From Calothrix sp. FI2-JRJ7 (GTDB lineage: Bacteria; Cyanobacteriota; Cyanobacteriia; Cyanobacteriales; Nostocaceae), in contig JAHHGX010000017.1 in NCBI GenBank assembly GCA_019359675.1, forward strand, positions 1-64,000: DNA of 64,000 nucleotides, written 5' to 3'. Shown in pieces: positions 41,808 to 48,297 of this stretch (position 1 is its first letter; each line of letters begins with the position of its first letter). A program made the translations under genes and the position numbers. Below the pieces are notes generated by a model that worked only from the letters and a program-made list of their open reading frames with translations, had not been told where the DNA came from and searched no databases.

Positions 41808-44240
41808 ATGACCACAGATATTGAAACAATCTTGCGTAATGCCCGCAACCAGTTGAATGAACTTGGCGAAGCTGTTGAAAACTTACCAACTACTTACCCT
41901 GATGTGTTTGAAGACACAAGTATTGGGGAGAGACTAGAATCTTTTCGGATTTGCCATCGAGAGGCTGTGGATAGGTTACAGGCGCCAAGTTTATCTATCG
42001 CGATGATTGGCACAACATCTTCTGGTAAGTCAACTATCGTCAATGCTTTAATTGGTCGCAAAATTGCTCCTATAGAAGCAGGTGAGATGAGTGGGGGAGT
42101 TTTAACACTACGTCATGCTTTTGAGCGTAAATTAATAATTGAAGAAACAGAAGGGTCTGCTTGGGAAACAGGCGTTTGGTCAGATTTGAGTGATGAAGCT
42201 CTGTATGAAAAAATACGTGATGGTGTAATGCGTCCTTATCATGACACCCGTGAGAAAAGAGACTGTATGGCGCCACGGGTAACTGCCTATATACCGCTTT
42301 TACCAGCATCAGACAAAAACTTACTGGGATTACCACAAGGTGTGGGAGTTGAGTTAATTGATTTACCCGGTTTAAAGTCAATTCAAGACCGCGATAATTT
42401 AAAAGTTATTCAAGAAAAAGTTCATAAAGCGTTTAGTGTCGTAGCTTTAGACTATTTGCAGGTGGATGACAAACACAGAAAACGTTTGTTGGAAGAACTT
42501 AAAAAAGTTGTAGAGTACCTGCAAGGTCGTACTGATTCAATGATTTTTATCTTAAATCGGGTAGACCAGCGCGGAGCAGAAGATATTCCAATTTCAGAAC
42601 GTATTGAAAAACTCCAGAAAGAAATTCAAGAAGTATTATCTTTACGAGAACCGCCAGAAATTTTACCTTTCAGCGCGCGACTTCTTTATTACGCCCAGTG
42701 CGCTTGGGGGTCAAGCTCTCTCAATAGTACATCTTCTATTGAGCAAGCAACACGCCTAAAGCTACTACAGGCAATGTTCCAATACTGTGCAACAGCGATT
42801 AAACAGCATACAAGTGAAAATAAAGAATTGCGGCGTTGGTTTCGTGATATTGAAGACTCCGTAGATGATGGCAGCTATATTGATGATGAAACAATGCGGA
42901 AAATCCTTCAATATGCTCTAGACTGGAGTGGTGGCAGCAAACTGTGGCATCGATTACGTAGTCGGGTTGAAGAATCGTTTCCTGAACTTGTGTTATTACC
43001 AGCTTTAATCGAAGTTTTTGATAGCTATAGTGCTTTAGATGCAGCTATTAATACTGTTGCTAGTATTAGAAAAATTGAGCAGAAAGAGGAAATTGAGGCA
43101 CAGCAAGCAAAAATTAACGATAGTCGGCGACGTTTGCATGAGACAGTTGAAAACTATCGTAAAAGTTTCAGTTCTAAAATAGAACTAGTTATTAAAGATT
43201 TAAAGACTAATGAGCAAGTAGTTATTAGTCGTCTAGTACAACAGTTACAAGAAGAAGGATATCAAGGTTTTCAACCATTATTAGATGCAGTTAATGAAAC
43301 TGAAGGAGATTTGAATCAAGTACTTATATTACCTGTTAGAGATGCGCTAAAAAACAATCAGAGCGCTTACGAACTAGAAGAAAAACTACATCAAATTATT
43401 AGTCCTGCAATAGCAAATGATATAGCTAGAGCATACGACCTAGTAAGTCGTAAAGTAAATAATTTTAGTAAAGATTCTGGTCATTTACAAAAGCGTGTTC
43501 GTCAAGACGATAACCAAGGTATCAGAGAACTTGAACATGCTGAACGTGCAGTTCGCGCGCTTTACCAAGCAATGCGAGAAGCGCTAACACTTCGAGCGGA
43601 ATTTATACTTCAAGCACAAGCACAAAAACTTGAAAATGCCTTGGAGTTATTTATCAAAGAGCAGGATAATCAACTTCGTACTATTTGTTTGCAAGAGCTT
43701 CCAAATCTCAAACTTGATGAGGCGATTATTACCGAATTCAGAAAAAATGTTTATTTAAACACTCTTATTCTACCTGAAAAATTTTTTGAACTCCCAACAA
43801 GTATTAATCAAAAAACAGTCACAGAAAAAGAAGTTGTAGGAAACGAAGACGTAACTACACAAGGTAGCTCTTATAAAACAACTGAGAAAAAAGACAAATT
43901 TGAAAATGTAAATTACCGAGAGCTTTTACTTCCTAACGAAACTACTATGGTTAAACAATGGTCAGAAGGAATTACTAAAGGTAAACAACGCTTATGGGAT
44001 ATTATTTGCTCTTGGCTTACTGGTCGCTTAGATTGGGCAAGCACTGTTTTTAATACATCAGTAGATGATGTTACTGACTTTGCAGAACGCGCGCTTCAAG
44101 AGCAATTAAAGGTAATTGAGGAAAACTTCTCAACTGAAATGCAGCGTTGGAATGAAATTGAAGCTGACAAAGCTTTAGCCACAGAAGCGTTACGGAAGCT
44201 AGAAGAACAAACCCGCACATCAATCATAATATATTTCTGA
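41808..44240 (+). CDS. Dynamin-like large GTPase
   Basis: 810 residues. The G1 P-loop GTTSSGKST is at about 68-76, G2-region threonines in MSGGVLTLRHA, G3 is DLPG (about 184-187), and G4 is NRVD (about 249-252). A long helical stalk follows with coiled coils (IRKIEQKEEIEAQQAKINDSRRRL at about 420; LEHAERAVRALYQAMREALTLRAEF at about 580). The overall order is that of bacterial dynamin-like proteins, which tubulate or fuse membranes. It has no obvious membrane-spanning paddle of its own, but the next two genes encode hydrophobic segments. They follow at 6 and 15 bp, so one operon is nearly certain. A defence role is inference. Confidence 0.8.
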   Translation: MTTDIETILRNARNQLNELGEAVENLPTTYPDVFEDTSIGERLESFRICHREAVDRLQAPSLSIAMIGTTSSGKSTIVNALIGRKIAPIEAGEMSGGVLTLRHAFERKLIIEETEGSAWETGVWSDLSDEALYEKIRDGVMRPYHDTREKRDCMAPRVTAYIPLLPASDKNLLGLPQGVGVELIDLPGLKSIQDRDNLKVIQEKVHKAFSVVALDYLQVDDKHRKRLLEELKKVVEYLQGRTDSMIFILNRVDQRGAEDIPISERIEKLQKEIQEVLSLREPPEILPFSARLLYYAQCAWGSSSLNSTSSIEQATRLKLLQAMFQYCATAIKQHTSENKELRRWFRDIEDSVDDGSYIDDETMRKILQYALDWSGGSKLWHRLRSRVEESFPELVLLPALIEVFDSYSALDAAINTVASIRKIEQKEEIEAQQAKINDSRRRLHETVENYRKSFSSKIELVIKDLKTNEQVVISRLVQQLQEEGYQGFQPLLDAVNETEGDLNQVLILPVRDALKNNQSAYELEEKLHQIISPAIANDIARAYDLVSRKVNNFSKDSGHLQKRVRQDDNQGIRELEHAERAVRALYQAMREALTLRAEFILQAQAQKLENALELFIKEQDNQLRTICLQELPNLKLDEAIITEFRKNVYLNTLILPEKFFELPTSINQKTVTEKEVVGNEDVTTQGSSYKTTEKKDKFENVNYRELLLPNETTMVKQWSEGITKGKQRLWDIICSWLTGRLDWASTVFNTSVDDVTDFAERALQEQLKVIEENFSTEMQRWNEIEADKALATEALRKLEEQTRTSIIIYF

Positions 44241-44246
44241 AAATAA

Positions 44247-45095
44247 ATGATTTTCTCTAACTATTTCAATGAAGCTTTGGAAAATATTGTACGTGAAGTG
44301 GAGCGATTCGCAAGACAAACTAATAATTATAGTTATGGCTATATTTTAGGTTGTGCAGTAGAGTGTTGGTGCAAAAAACTTCAATTTTCAAATGAAATAA
44401 CTACCTACATTTATAATGTATCAGTCAACGCACAAGATTTAACCAATGATATTTGGTCATTTTGGAAACCAAAAACAGAAAAATCGGGGAAAGATGATAG
44501 TAAATTTAAAAAATATATTGATGATAAGATAGGTAATAAGATGAAATACAGATTTGACGATTGGAGATTTCTAGTATTCTTTGGTTTTTTGATAACTGCG
44601 GTTGGTTATGGGCTTTACTTGTTGAATCAGCAATCAACAAAAAAGGATAATATAAATCAACGTAAATTATCTGCTGATCAATTTCCTAATTCATATCAGC
44701 AAACAGAAAACTTCTTTTTAATTTTGGTTATAAATGCTACAAAAGAAGATATTCTGCAAACGCTGAAAGCTAACAGTAGAATTACAAGCGCTCAATCTGA
44801 TTTGCTATATCGTGCTACACAATCTTTATGGATGGGGTCTAAAACAGATTTCTTTAATTCTGGACTTGAACACTGGTTTTACAGTAAAGCTACAGCTTCA
44901 GAGCTAAAATCTGAATATGATGTTTATTTTGTAAAAATTGAGTTATTTAATAATGATATTGGATTGAAGTCAGATGCAAATCAAGTAGATAGAATCGACG
45001 CATTTCATCGATTGCCTGATAATTCGGCTAAGCTTGAGGTATCTGACAGATTACCTAGTAAAGCTTATGAAAACAGGTATTTATACAGCCGATAA
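44247..45095 (+). CDS. Single-pass membrane protein of the dynamin operon, unknown family
   Basis: 282 residues. An N-terminal cytoplasmic part (1-105) includes ALENIVREVERFARQTNNYSYGYILGCAVECWCKK, a membrane segment spans about 107-126 (RFLVFFGFLITAVGYGLYLL), and a C-terminal 155-residue domain has LILVINATKEDILQTLKANSRI. I do not recognise either soluble domain. It sits between the GTPase and a helical membrane-associated protein with 6- and 15-bp gaps, so it is probably a membrane anchor or partner of the GTPase. Confidence 0.7.
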   Translation: MIFSNYFNEALENIVREVERFARQTNNYSYGYILGCAVECWCKKLQFSNEITTYIYNVSVNAQDLTNDIWSFWKPKTEKSGKDDSKFKKYIDDKIGNKMKYRFDDWRFLVFFGFLITAVGYGLYLLNQQSTKKDNINQRKLSADQFPNSYQQTENFFLILVINATKEDILQTLKANSRITSAQSDLLYRATQSLWMGSKTDFFNSGLEHWFYSKATASELKSEYDVYFVKIELFNNDIGLKSDANQVDRIDAFHRLPDNSAKLEVSDRLPSKAYENRYLYSR

Positions 45096-45110
45096 GAGAT
45101 AAGATTTTTT

Positions 45111-46346
45111 ATGTTTATTGACACAACTCTTTTAGTTAATGACCCAGCAATTATTCAAGGTTTACTCGATGGCTCTCTAAAGCGATTTGGTGGTGTTATT
45201 AGAGAAGCTGCAACAGGTAAAATTGTACGTCATTTACTTGAAACTCCTGGTTTGACTAATAAATTAATGACTCTACCACTTAACCCTATATTAGGTGGCG
45301 CCGACTTAGTTACAGATTTGGTTGGTCATGGTATCACAATTAATAAGCTGAACAAAATTCAGGATAAATTATCCTCTGTATTAAACTTAACCCAAATTGC
45401 TGCTGGCGCCAGTATTTTGAATATTGGCGTAAGCATTGCTGGTTTTGCCTACATGGGCTATAAACTCCACCAAATTCAAAATGCTTTAGATAATGTGCAA
45501 AAATCTATAGAAGCAGGTTTTAATCGAGTTGACAAGCGTTTAGATAATTTATCCGGTCAACTCGCGTATCTCCATTTGCTCGTTGAAGATAGCAGACAAA
45601 AGCAGCAACGTATTGGCAAAGCTATTTTGGAACTTCATCGAACAATTTTAGTTAAGGAAATAGCTAACTTACAAGCAGAGCTTATAGACAGAAGTCGCTT
45701 TCCTGATAGTCCTGCACGAAATGCTCTTAAAGTAGCATCGCTTGCGAGGATAGTTCTTTCCGACCAAGCAATGCAAGCCAAACCTGCTTTAGAAGCCGAA
45801 ACTATGTTAATTAGTGATGTTGCTACTCAAGGTTGGGCAGTTGCAACAGCAACGGAAGCTTATCTTTTATTGGAAAACGGGCAGATTAATGAGGCACAGG
45901 AGTTACTTGCTCTTGAAGTTCCAAAATTCAAAAATCTTGTTTTGCAATGGTCAGATTCATTAATAGCTGATGAAAGAAACCAGCTTAGAACAGCATATCG
46001 CTTTACGGCGCCTCATTTTAAGCAACATATCAGTAATCAGCGTGCGGAAAGAATTGTTTACATTTCCTCAGCAGATAATTCTTTGTCTCAAGAGCAAATA
46101 CGGCGGAAGAAAAAGGATGTTGAGTTAGAGTTTGAAATGTCCTATAGTTCTATATTTGATCAGAAATGGACGTATCGGCAAATCGCTGTGGCTGAGTATC
46201 TAGATGCTAAAAGCGAACTTCTAGCTAGACTAGAGAGTATACAAGCTTTCGCTGAGACTTGTAAAAGTAGAGGCGTCAAGACCAGTCTTGATATTCTTCC
46301 TGCTGGTAACGTAGAACCTGGGTTATACTGCTTACCAGCAAACTAA
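45111..46346 (+). CDS. Helical membrane-associated protein of the dynamin operon
   Basis: 411 residues. The N-terminal region IQGLLDGSLKRFGGVIREAATGKIVRHLLETPGLT is followed by hydrophobic segments (LPLNPILGGADLVTDLVGHGI; LTQIAAGASILNIGVSIAGFAYMGYKL at about 90-117). Then comes a coiled coil (IQNALDNVQKSIEAGFNRVDKRLDNLSGQLAYL) and a mostly helical C-terminal half. I recall similar proteins as uncharacterised cyanobacterial proteins, but cannot name a family. The layout (hydrophobic hairpin plus long helices) is like membrane-remodelling or pore-forming partners. It is third and last in the operon. Confidence 0.7.
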   Translation: MFIDTTLLVNDPAIIQGLLDGSLKRFGGVIREAATGKIVRHLLETPGLTNKLMTLPLNPILGGADLVTDLVGHGITINKLNKIQDKLSSVLNLTQIAAGASILNIGVSIAGFAYMGYKLHQIQNALDNVQKSIEAGFNRVDKRLDNLSGQLAYLHLLVEDSRQKQQRIGKAILELHRTILVKEIANLQAELIDRSRFPDSPARNALKVASLARIVLSDQAMQAKPALEAETMLISDVATQGWAVATATEAYLLLENGQINEAQELLALEVPKFKNLVLQWSDSLIADERNQLRTAYRFTAPHFKQHISNQRAERIVYISSADNSLSQEQIRRKKKDVELEFEMSYSSIFDQKWTYRQIAVAEYLDAKSELLARLESIQAFAETCKSRGVKTSLDILPAGNVEPGLYCLPAN

Positions 46347-46372
46347 AAAATATAAACTTATAGTTCAAAAAC

Positions 46373-46933
46373 TTATCTCAGCTTTAGCCAAGCAAATACA
46401 TCATCTACACAAATTGTAAAATTTATACCTGGTAACACAGGTAAAATATCCTTAAGAGTTAACAAACTAGGTAGAGTATCTGGTTGATAAACAATGATAG
46501 AACGTTCGCTTGGGTCAATCAACCATCCAAGCAACGAGCCATTTCTTATACAATATAAAATATTACCTGTCACCTTAGTTTGACTTTGGTCTGGTGAAAG
46601 AATTTCAATTACCCAATCTGGAGCGAAATTGATACCAGTACTAATAATATCGCCATTTTCATCAACTGGTAGTCTGTCTGTTGCTACTACCGAAATATCA
46701 GGAACAACCGAACGATTACCAAATGTACAGCGTAATTCTGGAAAAGCCTCATAGTTGCTAGCTGTTGCATCAATACCTGCAATTAGACGTTTCTGTAAAA
46801 GACTATGCTTGCCTCCACCCATTGGTTTTTGATATATATTAGTGTTTATGTACTCCCATGCGGGTGATTCGTCAATGTAAGGAAGTTGTAGAAATTCTTC
46901 CAAAGTGGTTTTTGGAATTGAGATTGTCTCCAT
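46373..46933 (-). CDS. Uma2 family (DUF820) protein
   Basis: 186 residues: TTLEEFLQLPYIDESPAWEYINTNIYQKPMGGGKHSLLQKRL...FGNRSVVPDISVVATDRLP...DWVIEILSPDQSQTKVTGNILYCIRNGSLLGWLIDPSERSIIVY. The D...EILSP.....V....Y...G...WLI pattern is the PD-(D/E)XK-like core. It is convergent to the dynamin operon (27 bp gap). Role unknown. Confidence 0.87.
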   Translation of the reverse strand: METISIPKTTLEEFLQLPYIDESPAWEYINTNIYQKPMGGGKHSLLQKRLIAGIDATASNYEAFPELRCTFGNRSVVPDISVVATDRLPVDENGDIISTGINFAPDWVIEILSPDQSQTKVTGNILYCIRNGSLLGWLIDPSERSIIVYQPDTLPSLLTLKDILPVLPGINFTICVDDVFAWLKLR

Positions 46934-47052
46934 AAACGCCTATTTTACATTTTTTGGTATGTGCATGGCACAACAATATTTTATCTTAATTAAATAAATC
47001 GTGTAATCAATGTAAATTTGCTGCATTTGGAAAGACAGAGGCGCCGTTTGCC

Positions 47053-47108
47053 AAAAACATGATCACTGATAGATTAACATGATCATCAAGGGGGTTTATG
47101 ATCATGTT
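47053..47108. repeat. 56-bp direct repeat, upstream copy (terminal AACATGATCA / TGATCATGTT)
   Basis: The element has terminal inverted repeats and an extra internal AACATGATCAT. The copy at 48225-48280 is identical at about 49 of 56 positions and in the same orientation. It lies 84 bp before the fic ATG, in the promoter region, so it may also be an operator. Confidence 0.85.
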
Positions 47109-47191
47109 TCTGAGTTATTGTAGGTTTAACTTGGCTCGGAGATAAACTTTCTAACGCCAGGTTAAGTGGAGTAAGATTATAGGAACTGCCC

Positions 47192-48241
47192 ATGCAGTCG
47201 TTTGAACCAGGCTTTATTGAGCGTCAACCAATTACTCAAAATATACTGCGAACTATTCGACTTATCGGTGAGTACAAAGGTAAGCAAGAATTATTCAATC
47301 AACAGGCGCCTCAAGTTTTGGAAACATTGCAACAAGCTGCTATTATCCAAAGTACCGAATCATCTAACCGTATTGAAGGAGTCGAAGCTCCCCTCGAACG
47401 TATCAAAGCACTAGTAGCACAAAAAACAACACCGCAAAACCGCTCTGAGCAAGAGATTGCTGGATATCGAGATGTTCTTAACACGATTCATGCCAGCTAC
47501 GAGTATATGCCTTTTAACACGAGCTTGGTATTACAGTTACACAGAGACTTATATCAGTTTTTGCCAAGTGGTGGTGGTCAGTGGAAATCCTCTAATAACA
47601 ATATTACCGAAACTCGACCGGATGGCTCAACTGTTGTACGGTTTGAAACAGTTACGGCTTTTTTGACACCTGGCGCCATGACGCAGTTACATGAACGCTT
47701 TAATAGTATGATGCAAGCAGATGAAGTTGAGCCGTTACTCCTAATTCCTAGCTATGTCTTGGATTTTCTTTGCATTCATCCGTTTCGAGATGGTAATGGT
47801 CGAATGGCTCGCTTGTTGACTTTATTATTGCTGTATCAAGCAGGATATGAAGTCGGTCGCTACATCAGTTTGGAAAAAATAGTTGAGCGCAGCAAGGAGA
47901 GTTACTACGATACCTTATATCAATCATCGTTAGGTTGGCATTCAGGACAGCACACCTTACTTCCTTGGTGGGAATATTTTCTTGGTGTTATTTTAAGAGC
48001 TTACCGAGATTTTGAGCAGCGGGTTGGTTTGCTGACATCAAGTAAAGGGGCAAAACGCGAAGTTGTGTTTGATGTGGTTGAGAGATTACCAAATCAATTT
48101 AAATATATAGATGTTGAGCGCGCGTGTCCCGGTATTAGTCGTCCTACAATTAATCGGGCTTTGGCAGAACTCCGTAATGCTGGTAAAATTCGATGCATCA
48201 AGTCGGGTCGAGACGCAATTTGGGAAAAACATGATCATTGA
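47192..48241 (+). CDS. Fic family AMPylating protein with N-terminal inhibitory motif and winged-helix C-terminus
   Basis: 349 residues. The Fic motif HPFRDGNGR is at residues 196-204 with catalytic His196. The class II inhibitory motif SSNRIEG is at 57-63 with Glu62, so autoinhibition is built in and no separate antitoxin is required. N-terminal domain 1-110 is the DUF4172/Fic_N type. The C-terminal 70 residues (VVFDVVERLPNQFKYIDVERACPGISRPTINRALAELRNAGKI) are a winged helix. Fic enzymes transfer AMP to target proteins. The last codons (KHDH, stop) lie within the downstream copy of the flanking repeat. Confidence 0.88.
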   Translation: MQSFEPGFIERQPITQNILRTIRLIGEYKGKQELFNQQAPQVLETLQQAAIIQSTESSNRIEGVEAPLERIKALVAQKTTPQNRSEQEIAGYRDVLNTIHASYEYMPFNTSLVLQLHRDLYQFLPSGGGQWKSSNNNITETRPDGSTVVRFETVTAFLTPGAMTQLHERFNSMMQADEVEPLLLIPSYVLDFLCIHPFRDGNGRMARLLTLLLLYQAGYEVGRYISLEKIVERSKESYYDTLYQSSLGWHSGQHTLLPWWEYFLGVILRAYRDFEQRVGLLTSSKGAKREVVFDVVERLPNQFKYIDVERACPGISRPTINRALAELRNAGKIRCIKSGRDAIWEKHDH

Positions 48242-48280
48242 TTGATTAACTAGATCATTAAGGGTGGTTATGATCATGTT
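48225..48280. repeat. 56-bp direct repeat, downstream copy overlapping the fic 3' end
   Basis: It starts within codon GAA-AAA-CAT-GAT-CAT of fic and ends TGATCATGTT. It is the partner of 47053-47108. The gene is thus exactly bracketed by two same-orientation repeats that each carry terminal inverted repeats. Confidence 0.85.
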
Positions 48281-48297
48281 CTTTTTTTACGCGGTGT

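What the first reader, a model, noticed from the sequence alone, without database searches (positions are those of the whole stretch)
41808..46346. Three-gene dynamin-GTPase operon: candidate membrane-remodelling defence or repair system
A large dynamin-like GTPase with all G motifs is followed, 6 bp later, by a single-pass membrane protein of no recognised family. After another 15 bp comes a helical protein with a hydrophobic hairpin and coiled coil. Tight spacing implies a functional unit. Known dynamin-based antiphage systems (for example Eleos/LeoBC types) have different partner composition as far as I know. The neighbourhood (HNH protein next to ssrA, Uma2, Fic, STAND-like NTPases) is typical of a defence island.
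Basis: partly seen in the sequence, partly recalled or inferred. Interest (0 to 1): 0.75.

Follow-up and report, generated by a model that had tools for sequence, protein, structure and literature searches.

The report
Dynamin operon with pore-like effector
Three neighbouring cyanobacterial genes recur together as a unit that pairs a membrane-shaping GTPase with a swappable, probably membrane-attacking partner, which makes it a good but untested candidate for an unusual anti-virus system.

Summary
Window 41808-46346 encodes an 810-aa dynamin GTPase (DYN), a 282-aa single-pass membrane protein (G2) and a 411-aa protein (G3), 6 and 15 bp apart. In a sample of 386 cyanobacterial genomes, 16 carry this DYN subtype; 15 of them also carry a long G3 match and the 16th keeps a G3 remnant beside DYN. 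The unit is patchy and often decayed; copies lie on a conjugative plasmid beside Hma-type genes and inside a BREX cluster.

Four of 34 G3 loci carry an added class-3 lipase; one of these (L060) lacks the hydrophobic segment. Ten sister loci carry DYN, a G2 relative and a second dynamin instead of G3.

Best reading: a modular defence system in which a dynamin and a membrane adaptor control an exchangeable membrane-acting third component. It resembles Eleos plus Juk but fails membership tests of both. Defence is inferred: no infection data, enrichment beside defence genes not proven, direct comparison with solved JukB failed, and no significant PDB fold match for G2 or G3.

The parts
41808..44240 (+). 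DYN: dynamin-family GTPase, 810 aa; GTPase domain about residues 60-255, long remainder
44247..45095 (+). G2: single-pass membrane protein, 282 aa; helical N part, TM, C-terminal alpha/beta domain of no known family
   Evidence: (mean pLDDT 86.5)
44568..44624 (+). transmembrane segment of G2 (residues 108-126)
   Evidence: hydropathy only
45111..46346 (+). G3: 411-aa protein, JukB-like N-terminal module plus family-specific helical C-terminal domain
45132..45515 (+). JukB-like module of G3 (matches positions 12-136 of the 323-position PADLOC JukB model), contains hydrophobic segment 96-114
45590..46343 (+). C-terminal helical domain of G3, shared by copies with and without lipase; putative coupling to DYN/G2
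   Evidence: the coupling role is inference

Best explanation
A mobile three-component membrane-attack defence module. DYN, a GTPase of the dynamin family, assembles on a membrane when that membrane is disturbed or altered by infection (inferred). G2, anchored by one transmembrane helix, couples DYN to the third component (inferred). G3 is the effector: its JukB-like N-terminal module inserts into and permeabilises a membrane, in some copies backed, and in one replaced, by a class-3 lipase (activities inferred from homology), killing the infected cell or destroying a phage-derived membrane compartment. The C-terminal domain of G3 is the common docking part (inferred). Shown: an operon inherited as a unit, intact GTPase motifs, a JukB-type module, lipase fusions with the Ser, Asp and His positions kept, a second dynamin in place of G3 in sister operons, a plasmid copy and decay. 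Not shown: phage protection, pore formation, contact among the three proteins.
For: Linkage and joint inheritance. JukB model: 21 of 22 G3 proteins in A6 match at E up to 0.01, 9 of 22 also a second JukB model; the model gives 2 hits in the host genome and 0 of 14 control genomes. [quoted passage not shown] Lipase_3 at E 4e-29 and 1.2e-31 in the two fusions scanned; GHSLGG, the NDP Asp and the following His are kept in 4 of 4 fusions, and L060 lacks the hydrophobic segment and any JukB match. Exchange of the third gene: 10 sister loci carry DYN, small protein, second dynamin and no G3; their small proteins are G2 relatives (hhalign 94.9%, E 4.5e-8; the G2 HMM finds 4 of the 10 directly at E up to 0.01). 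Mobility: conjugative plasmid beside HmaC- and HmaB-type genes; between a pglX part and pglZ-brxL of BREX; GC differs from the flank by 0.05 or more in 5 of 8 loci checked. A close relative, L098, keeps the site with an internal deletion from window 42517 to 45178.
Against: No infection data. The JukB match covers only the N-terminal third of the model; a profile of this module did not find the solved JukB chain in the PDB at E up to 10, and Foldseek ranks 9jht (Jumbo phage Killer B) only 50th, at E 2.1. Foldseek found nothing at E up to 0.001 for G2 or G3; G3's own module is the badly modelled part. The JukB model rang in 0 of 299 genomes of the phylum of G387; the tool warns that this shows nothing about absence, so it cannot be counted as specificity. 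Neighbourhood test not decisive: 102 PADLOC families at 1e-20 among 102 neighbour proteins against 46 among 112 control proteins, where each of the 25 families listed per set was matched by one protein (one family by two), so a few proteins carry many overlapping models; of 10 neighbours that I chose from the 102, 3 matched at 1e-10. GC does not depart in L102, L072 and L086. Sixteen of 386 genomes have only N-module matches; in the three such loci looked at, no DYN or G2 match lay near, so the module also exists outside this unit. A paper reports that dynamin genes of a Pseudomonas island, not shown to be of this subtype, were not active against the phages tested (PMC12595487, passages).
Confidence: 0.53

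Rival explanations
1. Accessory membrane-repair or stress-response system: DYN and G2 remodel or seal damaged membrane and G3 is a scaffold, not a killer.
For: B. subtilis DynA is reported to support membrane integrity and delay lysis by phage (PMC8844932, abstract); dynamins are common in cyanobacteria and grouped by conserved partners (PMC5827413, section 7); many homologous loci sit among ordinary-looking genes (by eye).
Against: Only 16 of 386 cyanobacterial genomes carry the subtype; decayed copies, a plasmid copy and lipase fusions are unlike a maintenance function.
Confidence: 0.22
2. Eleos/LeoABC-like system whose job is membrane-vesicle or envelope trafficking; G3 replaces the second dynamin as a membrane-binding partner.
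For: Sister DYN1 and DYN2 (one locus tested, L163) match LeoBC and LeoA weakly (E 1.9e-6 each), in the order LeoBC-like then LeoA-like; leoABC of ETEC were linked to vesicle release (PMC4159319, passages).
Against: The window DYN matches LeoA best over 44 residues around the P-loop; G3 shows no GTPase domain; lipase fusions fit attack better than trafficking.
Confidence: 0.12
3. Selfish or competition module of mobile elements (plasmid stabilisation, superinfection exclusion or plasmid interference) rather than anti-phage immunity.
For: A copy on a conjugative plasmid and, by my reading of sequences, copies near mobility-type genes in L086 and L072.
Against: In most flanks read I saw no mobility gene (by eye, not a census); no antitoxin-like gene in the constant unit; no relative found in the phage records or viral contigs searched.
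Confidence: 0.1

Closest known systems
Juk (jumbo phage killer), effector JukB
   Same: N-terminal module of G3 matches PADLOC JukB and holds a hydrophobic segment; a membrane effector under control of another protein (inferred here); lipases as alternative effector type (review)
   Different: No JukA match at the window; the host genome's one JukA-model hit lies on another contig; long C-terminal domain outside the JukB match; dynamin and G2 in place of the JukA sensor
Eleos / LeoABC
   Same: Dynamin-based operon; LeoC has a predicted membrane anchor (PMC4159319, passages); the sister operons have two dynamins, in LeoBC-like then LeoA-like order
   Different: Window DYN shows only local similarity to LeoA/LeoBC; one dynamin only; G3 and G2 matched no Eleos model
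Cyanobacterial dynamin clades with conserved neighbours (KGK, HSR1, chaperone, Tandem A/B; PMC5827413)
   Same: Cyanobacterial dynamins grouped by linked partner genes; the sister DYN1-small-DYN2 operons may overlap the HSR1 clade (inference, not tested)
   Different: No clade with a JukB-like or lipase partner in the section read (section 7)
B. subtilis DynA and the 'Dynamins' label of defence-finding programs
   Same: Dynamin with a reported effect on phage infection; dynamins of bloom cyanobacteria have already been listed among phage-defence genes (PMC11265339, passages)
   Different: Single protein reported to delay lysis (abstract); the passages name no effector partner

Membership tests
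Dynamin superfamily | Dynamin_N GTPase domain above Pfam cut-off with G1, G3, G4 motifs | tested here: met
   56.2 against 27 bits; motifs
Juk system | JukB-type effector module | tested here: met
   N-terminal third only: 21 of 22 G3 proteins in A6; L060, not in A6, has no match
Juk system | Full-length JukB | tested here: not met
   Match covers positions 12-135 of 323; PDB JukB not found by profile
Juk system | JukA sensor encoded alongside | tested here: not met
   JukA model PDLC04113 hits the host genome once, at G000:C2, not on the window's contig C17; no JukA among hits of 8 window proteins. Flanks of homologues were not tested for it
Eleos | LeoA and LeoBC along their length | tested here: not met
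   DYN: LeoA E 1.1e-8, best stretch residues 52-95; LeoBC E 8.2e-8, best stretch 16-85
Eleos | Two dynamins in one operon | tested here: not met
   One in the window operon; two in 10 sister loci
LeoA/HP0731 family (NF041922) | Score above curated cut-off 325 | tested here: not met
   16 bits
Pore-forming effector | Oligomeric pore on membranes | not testable with these tools
   JukB pore activity is taken from a review
Anti-phage defence system | Reduces phage propagation | not testable with these tools
   needs a challenge assay
Anti-phage defence system | Enrichment next to known defence genes | tested here: inconclusive
   Clear cases L101, L051, L059; matched-control scan not decisive

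The most novel reading that the evidence does not exclude
A GTPase-gated membrane-attack immune system: a bacterial dynamin reads membrane shape during infection (phage injection site or phage-derived vesicle) and, through a dedicated transmembrane adaptor, licenses an exchangeable effector slot filled by a JukB-type pore former, a lipase fusion or a second dynamin. This would be immunity that senses membrane remodelling itself, and it would tie Eleos-like dynamin systems to Juk-like vesicle killers in one evolutionary scheme.
Probability: 0.35. Interest if true: 0.82.

Novelty: new variant of a known kind. Interest (0 to 1): 0.61.

Why it matters
What bacterial dynamins do in cells is largely open. 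A natural series in which related dynamin-adaptor pairs are combined with a pore-like module, a lipase fusion or a second dynamin makes that question testable: activation of G3 can be read as membrane damage, and the third gene can be exchanged. If true, it would also extend JukB-type effectors, described against nucleus-forming jumbo phages, to a dynamin-controlled system centred on cyanobacteria.

Tried and rejected
Core housekeeping: rejected on patchiness, differing flanks and decay. Phage-borne cargo: no relative found in phage records (DYN only) or viral contigs (DYN and G3). G2 as a known family: one PDB sequence line at E 0.71, no significant fold. G3 as a ClyA/Nhe-type toxin: such chains appear in the Foldseek list only at E above 1 and are not used. 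Direct confirmation against the solved JukB failed, and a search for JukB proteins to compare with, in 299 genomes of the phylum of G387, found none. The PADLOC neighbour scan was meant to count proteins but reports families, so it stays inconclusive. The Paracoccus plasmid protein with the same module (E 4.3e-13) had no PADLOC match in the two upstream proteins scanned. G2 in the phylum of G387: 1 of 299 genomes, G387 itself. The G2 match in G070 lies inside a frame of about 1100 aa and was dropped; with it dropped, 13 of 386 genomes match G2 by single sequence. Papers: searches listed no paper whose title or abstract start describes a dynamin operon with a JukB-like or lipase partner; of the listed papers I opened passages of seven (abstract and outline only, 126, 127, 128) and section 7 of one, not whole texts. 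The primary Juk paper (PMC12147104) is not held, so Juk facts come from one review; Eleos facts come from PADLOC models and the LeoABC paper.
Full report
Observation. The first has a Dynamin_N domain above the Pfam cut-off and the GTPase motifs GTTSSGKST, DLPG and NRVD (motif names recalled). The second has one strongly hydrophobic segment and no family beyond a Pfam line at E 0.34. The third is largely helical.

A unit, not a chance neighbourhood. In 386 cyanobacterial genomes drawn evenly from the phylum, a profile of the dynamin found 31 at E up to 1e-40, in two sets: 16 at E below 1e-100 and 15 weaker. A search with the window G3 found 34 of 386: 16 with a C-terminal match of 190 residues or more, 2 with short C-terminal pieces, and 16 with matches in the N-terminal part only. 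Fifteen of the first 16 carry the strong dynamin; the exception, G109, is a remnant with three stops. Conversely 15 of the 16 strong dynamins have a long G3, and the sixteenth, G247, has a G3 remnant 21 bp downstream. With the window's own G2 as query, 14 of 386 matched, one of which I dropped as unrelated. Gene order is DYN-G2-G3 in 12 further loci; two of them (L053, L054) have the dynamin in two frames and L063 has a stop near its end. Four more regions hold decayed or partial copies (L057, L064, L065, L066). A scan of GTDB genome contigs gave 36 loci: 23 hold all three genes (in L073, L101, L103 and L105 the dynamin is in more than one frame), 2 hold DYN and G3 without G2 (L100; L098 by deletion), 2 hold DYN and G2 without G3 (L095, L102), 7 are cut by a contig end, 1 is a distant Treponema locus and 1 a fragment. 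Protein distances correlate across 22 operons that I picked as intact; this shows joint inheritance only. Outside cyanobacteria the scan gave MAGs labelled Deltaproteobacteria (L091, all three genes; L097), Competibacteraceae (L095), Desulfobacterales (L106) and Treponema (L104), where mis-binning is possible, and one isolate, Ruminiclostridium papyrosolvens (L102).

Mobile and dispensable. On Nostoc sp. TCL26-01 plasmid pTCL26-01_C (typed conjugative) the operon lies 560 bp upstream of genes that PADLOC matches to HmaC (E 1.8e-97) and HmaB (2.3e-72). In Nodosilinea sp. LEGE 07298 (L101) it lies between the 3' part of a pglX (E 5.3e-117), with two small genes in between, and pglZ-brxL; the pglZ ORF opens 12 bp after G3; the dynamin frame there is split. 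In G105 (L059) an SNF2 helicase of HmaA type (8.5e-202) lies 2.3 kb downstream. In Dulcicalothrix desertica PCC 7102 (L098) the same chromosomal site, 87-95% identical to the window in its main aligned pieces, keeps DYN residues 1-236 joined by a deletion to a G3 fragment. GC of the operon differs from its flank by 0.05 or more in 5 of 8 loci checked (L051, L091, L095, L101, L104) and not in L072, L086, L102; the window operon itself (0.369) lies within the window's usual range. Elsewhere the flanks look like ordinary genes (by eye). A matched-control scan did not settle enrichment.

G3 is a modular protein. Residues 8-134 match PADLOC JukB, as do 21 of 22 G3 proteins in alignment A6, up to E 1.7e-16. 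The model gives two hits in the host genome and none in 14 controls; it also gave none in 299 genomes of another phylum, which the tool says proves nothing. [quoted passage not shown] Of 34 distinct G3 loci (13 from the window and, less 2 shared), 4 (L060, L072, L086, L094) carry a GHSLGG lipase domain at the N-terminus (Pfam tested in two), with the expected Asp and His in 4 of 4 (the triad is recalled). Three keep the JukB-like hydrophobic segment; L060 lacks it and has no JukB match, so there the lipase stands in for it. Limits: the match covers a third of the model, comparison with the solved JukB failed and the Foldseek hit to it is not significant.

The third slot is exchangeable. Of 16 regions fetched around the weaker dynamins (15 genomes), 10 show DYN, a small protein and then a second dynamin of 760-774 aa, and no G3 match; the other 6 are contig-cut or arranged otherwise. 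The small proteins are related to G2 over the transmembrane segment and the start of the C-terminal domain. The Competibacteraceae MAG L095 has window-type DYN and G2 followed by a second dynamin of the sister type (E 6.1e-218) on the opposite strand, so co-operation there is less sure; a Desulfobacterales contig shows DYN end, G2, second dynamin (E 2.2e-75 to the sister DYN2). In a GTPase-domain tree L095 falls inside the window-type clade (0.97) with L102 and L091 (0.90), so exchange or loss of the third gene happened within the clade; deeper nodes are weak (0.53-0.69). DYN1 and DYN2 of one sister locus match LeoBC and LeoA weakly, in the order of leoC-leoB-leoA (PMC4159319, passages).

Mechanism. 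Most likely the dynamin-adaptor pair controls a membrane-acting third component: G3 permeabilises a membrane, the lipase versions hydrolyse it, and the sister versions remodel it with a second dynamin. Everything past the anatomy is inference. Cell suicide and destruction of a phage compartment cannot be told apart here.

Known or new. It is not a Juk system: partial JukB, and the host genome's only JukA-model hit lies on another contig. It is not Eleos: no full-length LeoA/LeoBC, one dynamin. A survey of cyanobacterial dynamins lists clades by linked genes and none with this partner in the section read (PMC5827413, section 7). Dynamins of bloom cyanobacteria have been counted as phage-defence genes before (PMC11265339, passages), and one tested pair of island dynamins in Pseudomonas showed no activity against the phages used (PMC12595487, passages). 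Nine literature searches listed nothing that describes this operon, in a library that lacks many papers. I rate it a new variant of known kinds: dynamin-based and JukB-type components combined.

Noticed in passing
L158-L164, L166, L167, L169: Ten cyanobacterial loci with a DYN1 - small G2-like protein - DYN2 operon, a two-dynamin system; one of them tested shows weak LeoBC/LeoA similarity. May overlap the published HSR1 clade.
   Followed up: partly
G000:C2:58008-58403: The host genome holds a JukA-model match (E 4.8e-8) away from the window; whether a Juk-like system sits there was not looked at.
   Followed up: no
L175:6037-6981 (Paracoccus yeei plasmid pTT13-3): JukB-like protein (PADLOC E 4.3e-13) preceded by an unnamed 223-aa protein with a strongly hydrophobic stretch (2.26); no PADLOC match in the two upstream proteins scanned. 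A similar match on P. versutus pBEN.
   Followed up: partly
G000:C1:57592-58059 and L068-L070: Proteins of about 405-424 aa with the JukB-like N-terminal module; L068-L070 have a different C-terminal part and no DYN or G2 match near.
   Followed up: partly
window 47192-48241: Fic protein matching PADLOC SoFic (E 1.5e-33, 20-349 of 361), a further defence-type gene just downstream.
   Followed up: no
window 46358-48287 against L098 11204-13221: The Uma2 and Fic genes are in swapped order in Dulcicalothrix desertica PCC 7102.
   Followed up: no
L095 9794-12466 and 15699-16427: The DYN1 of this MAG and a nearby 242-aa protein share a Cys-rich N-terminus (zinc-ribbon-like, by eye); DYN2 lies between them on the other strand.
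   Followed up: no
G000:C87:37345-39541: Two weak dynamin matches in adjacent frames (729 and 689 aa) in the host genome, possibly a Tandem A/B pair.
   Followed up: no
L102:8542-9942: 466-aa gene 34 bp upstream of DYN in Ruminiclostridium papyrosolvens, where no G3 was found; only a weak PADLOC match (PDC-M11A, E 0.0013).
   Followed up: partly
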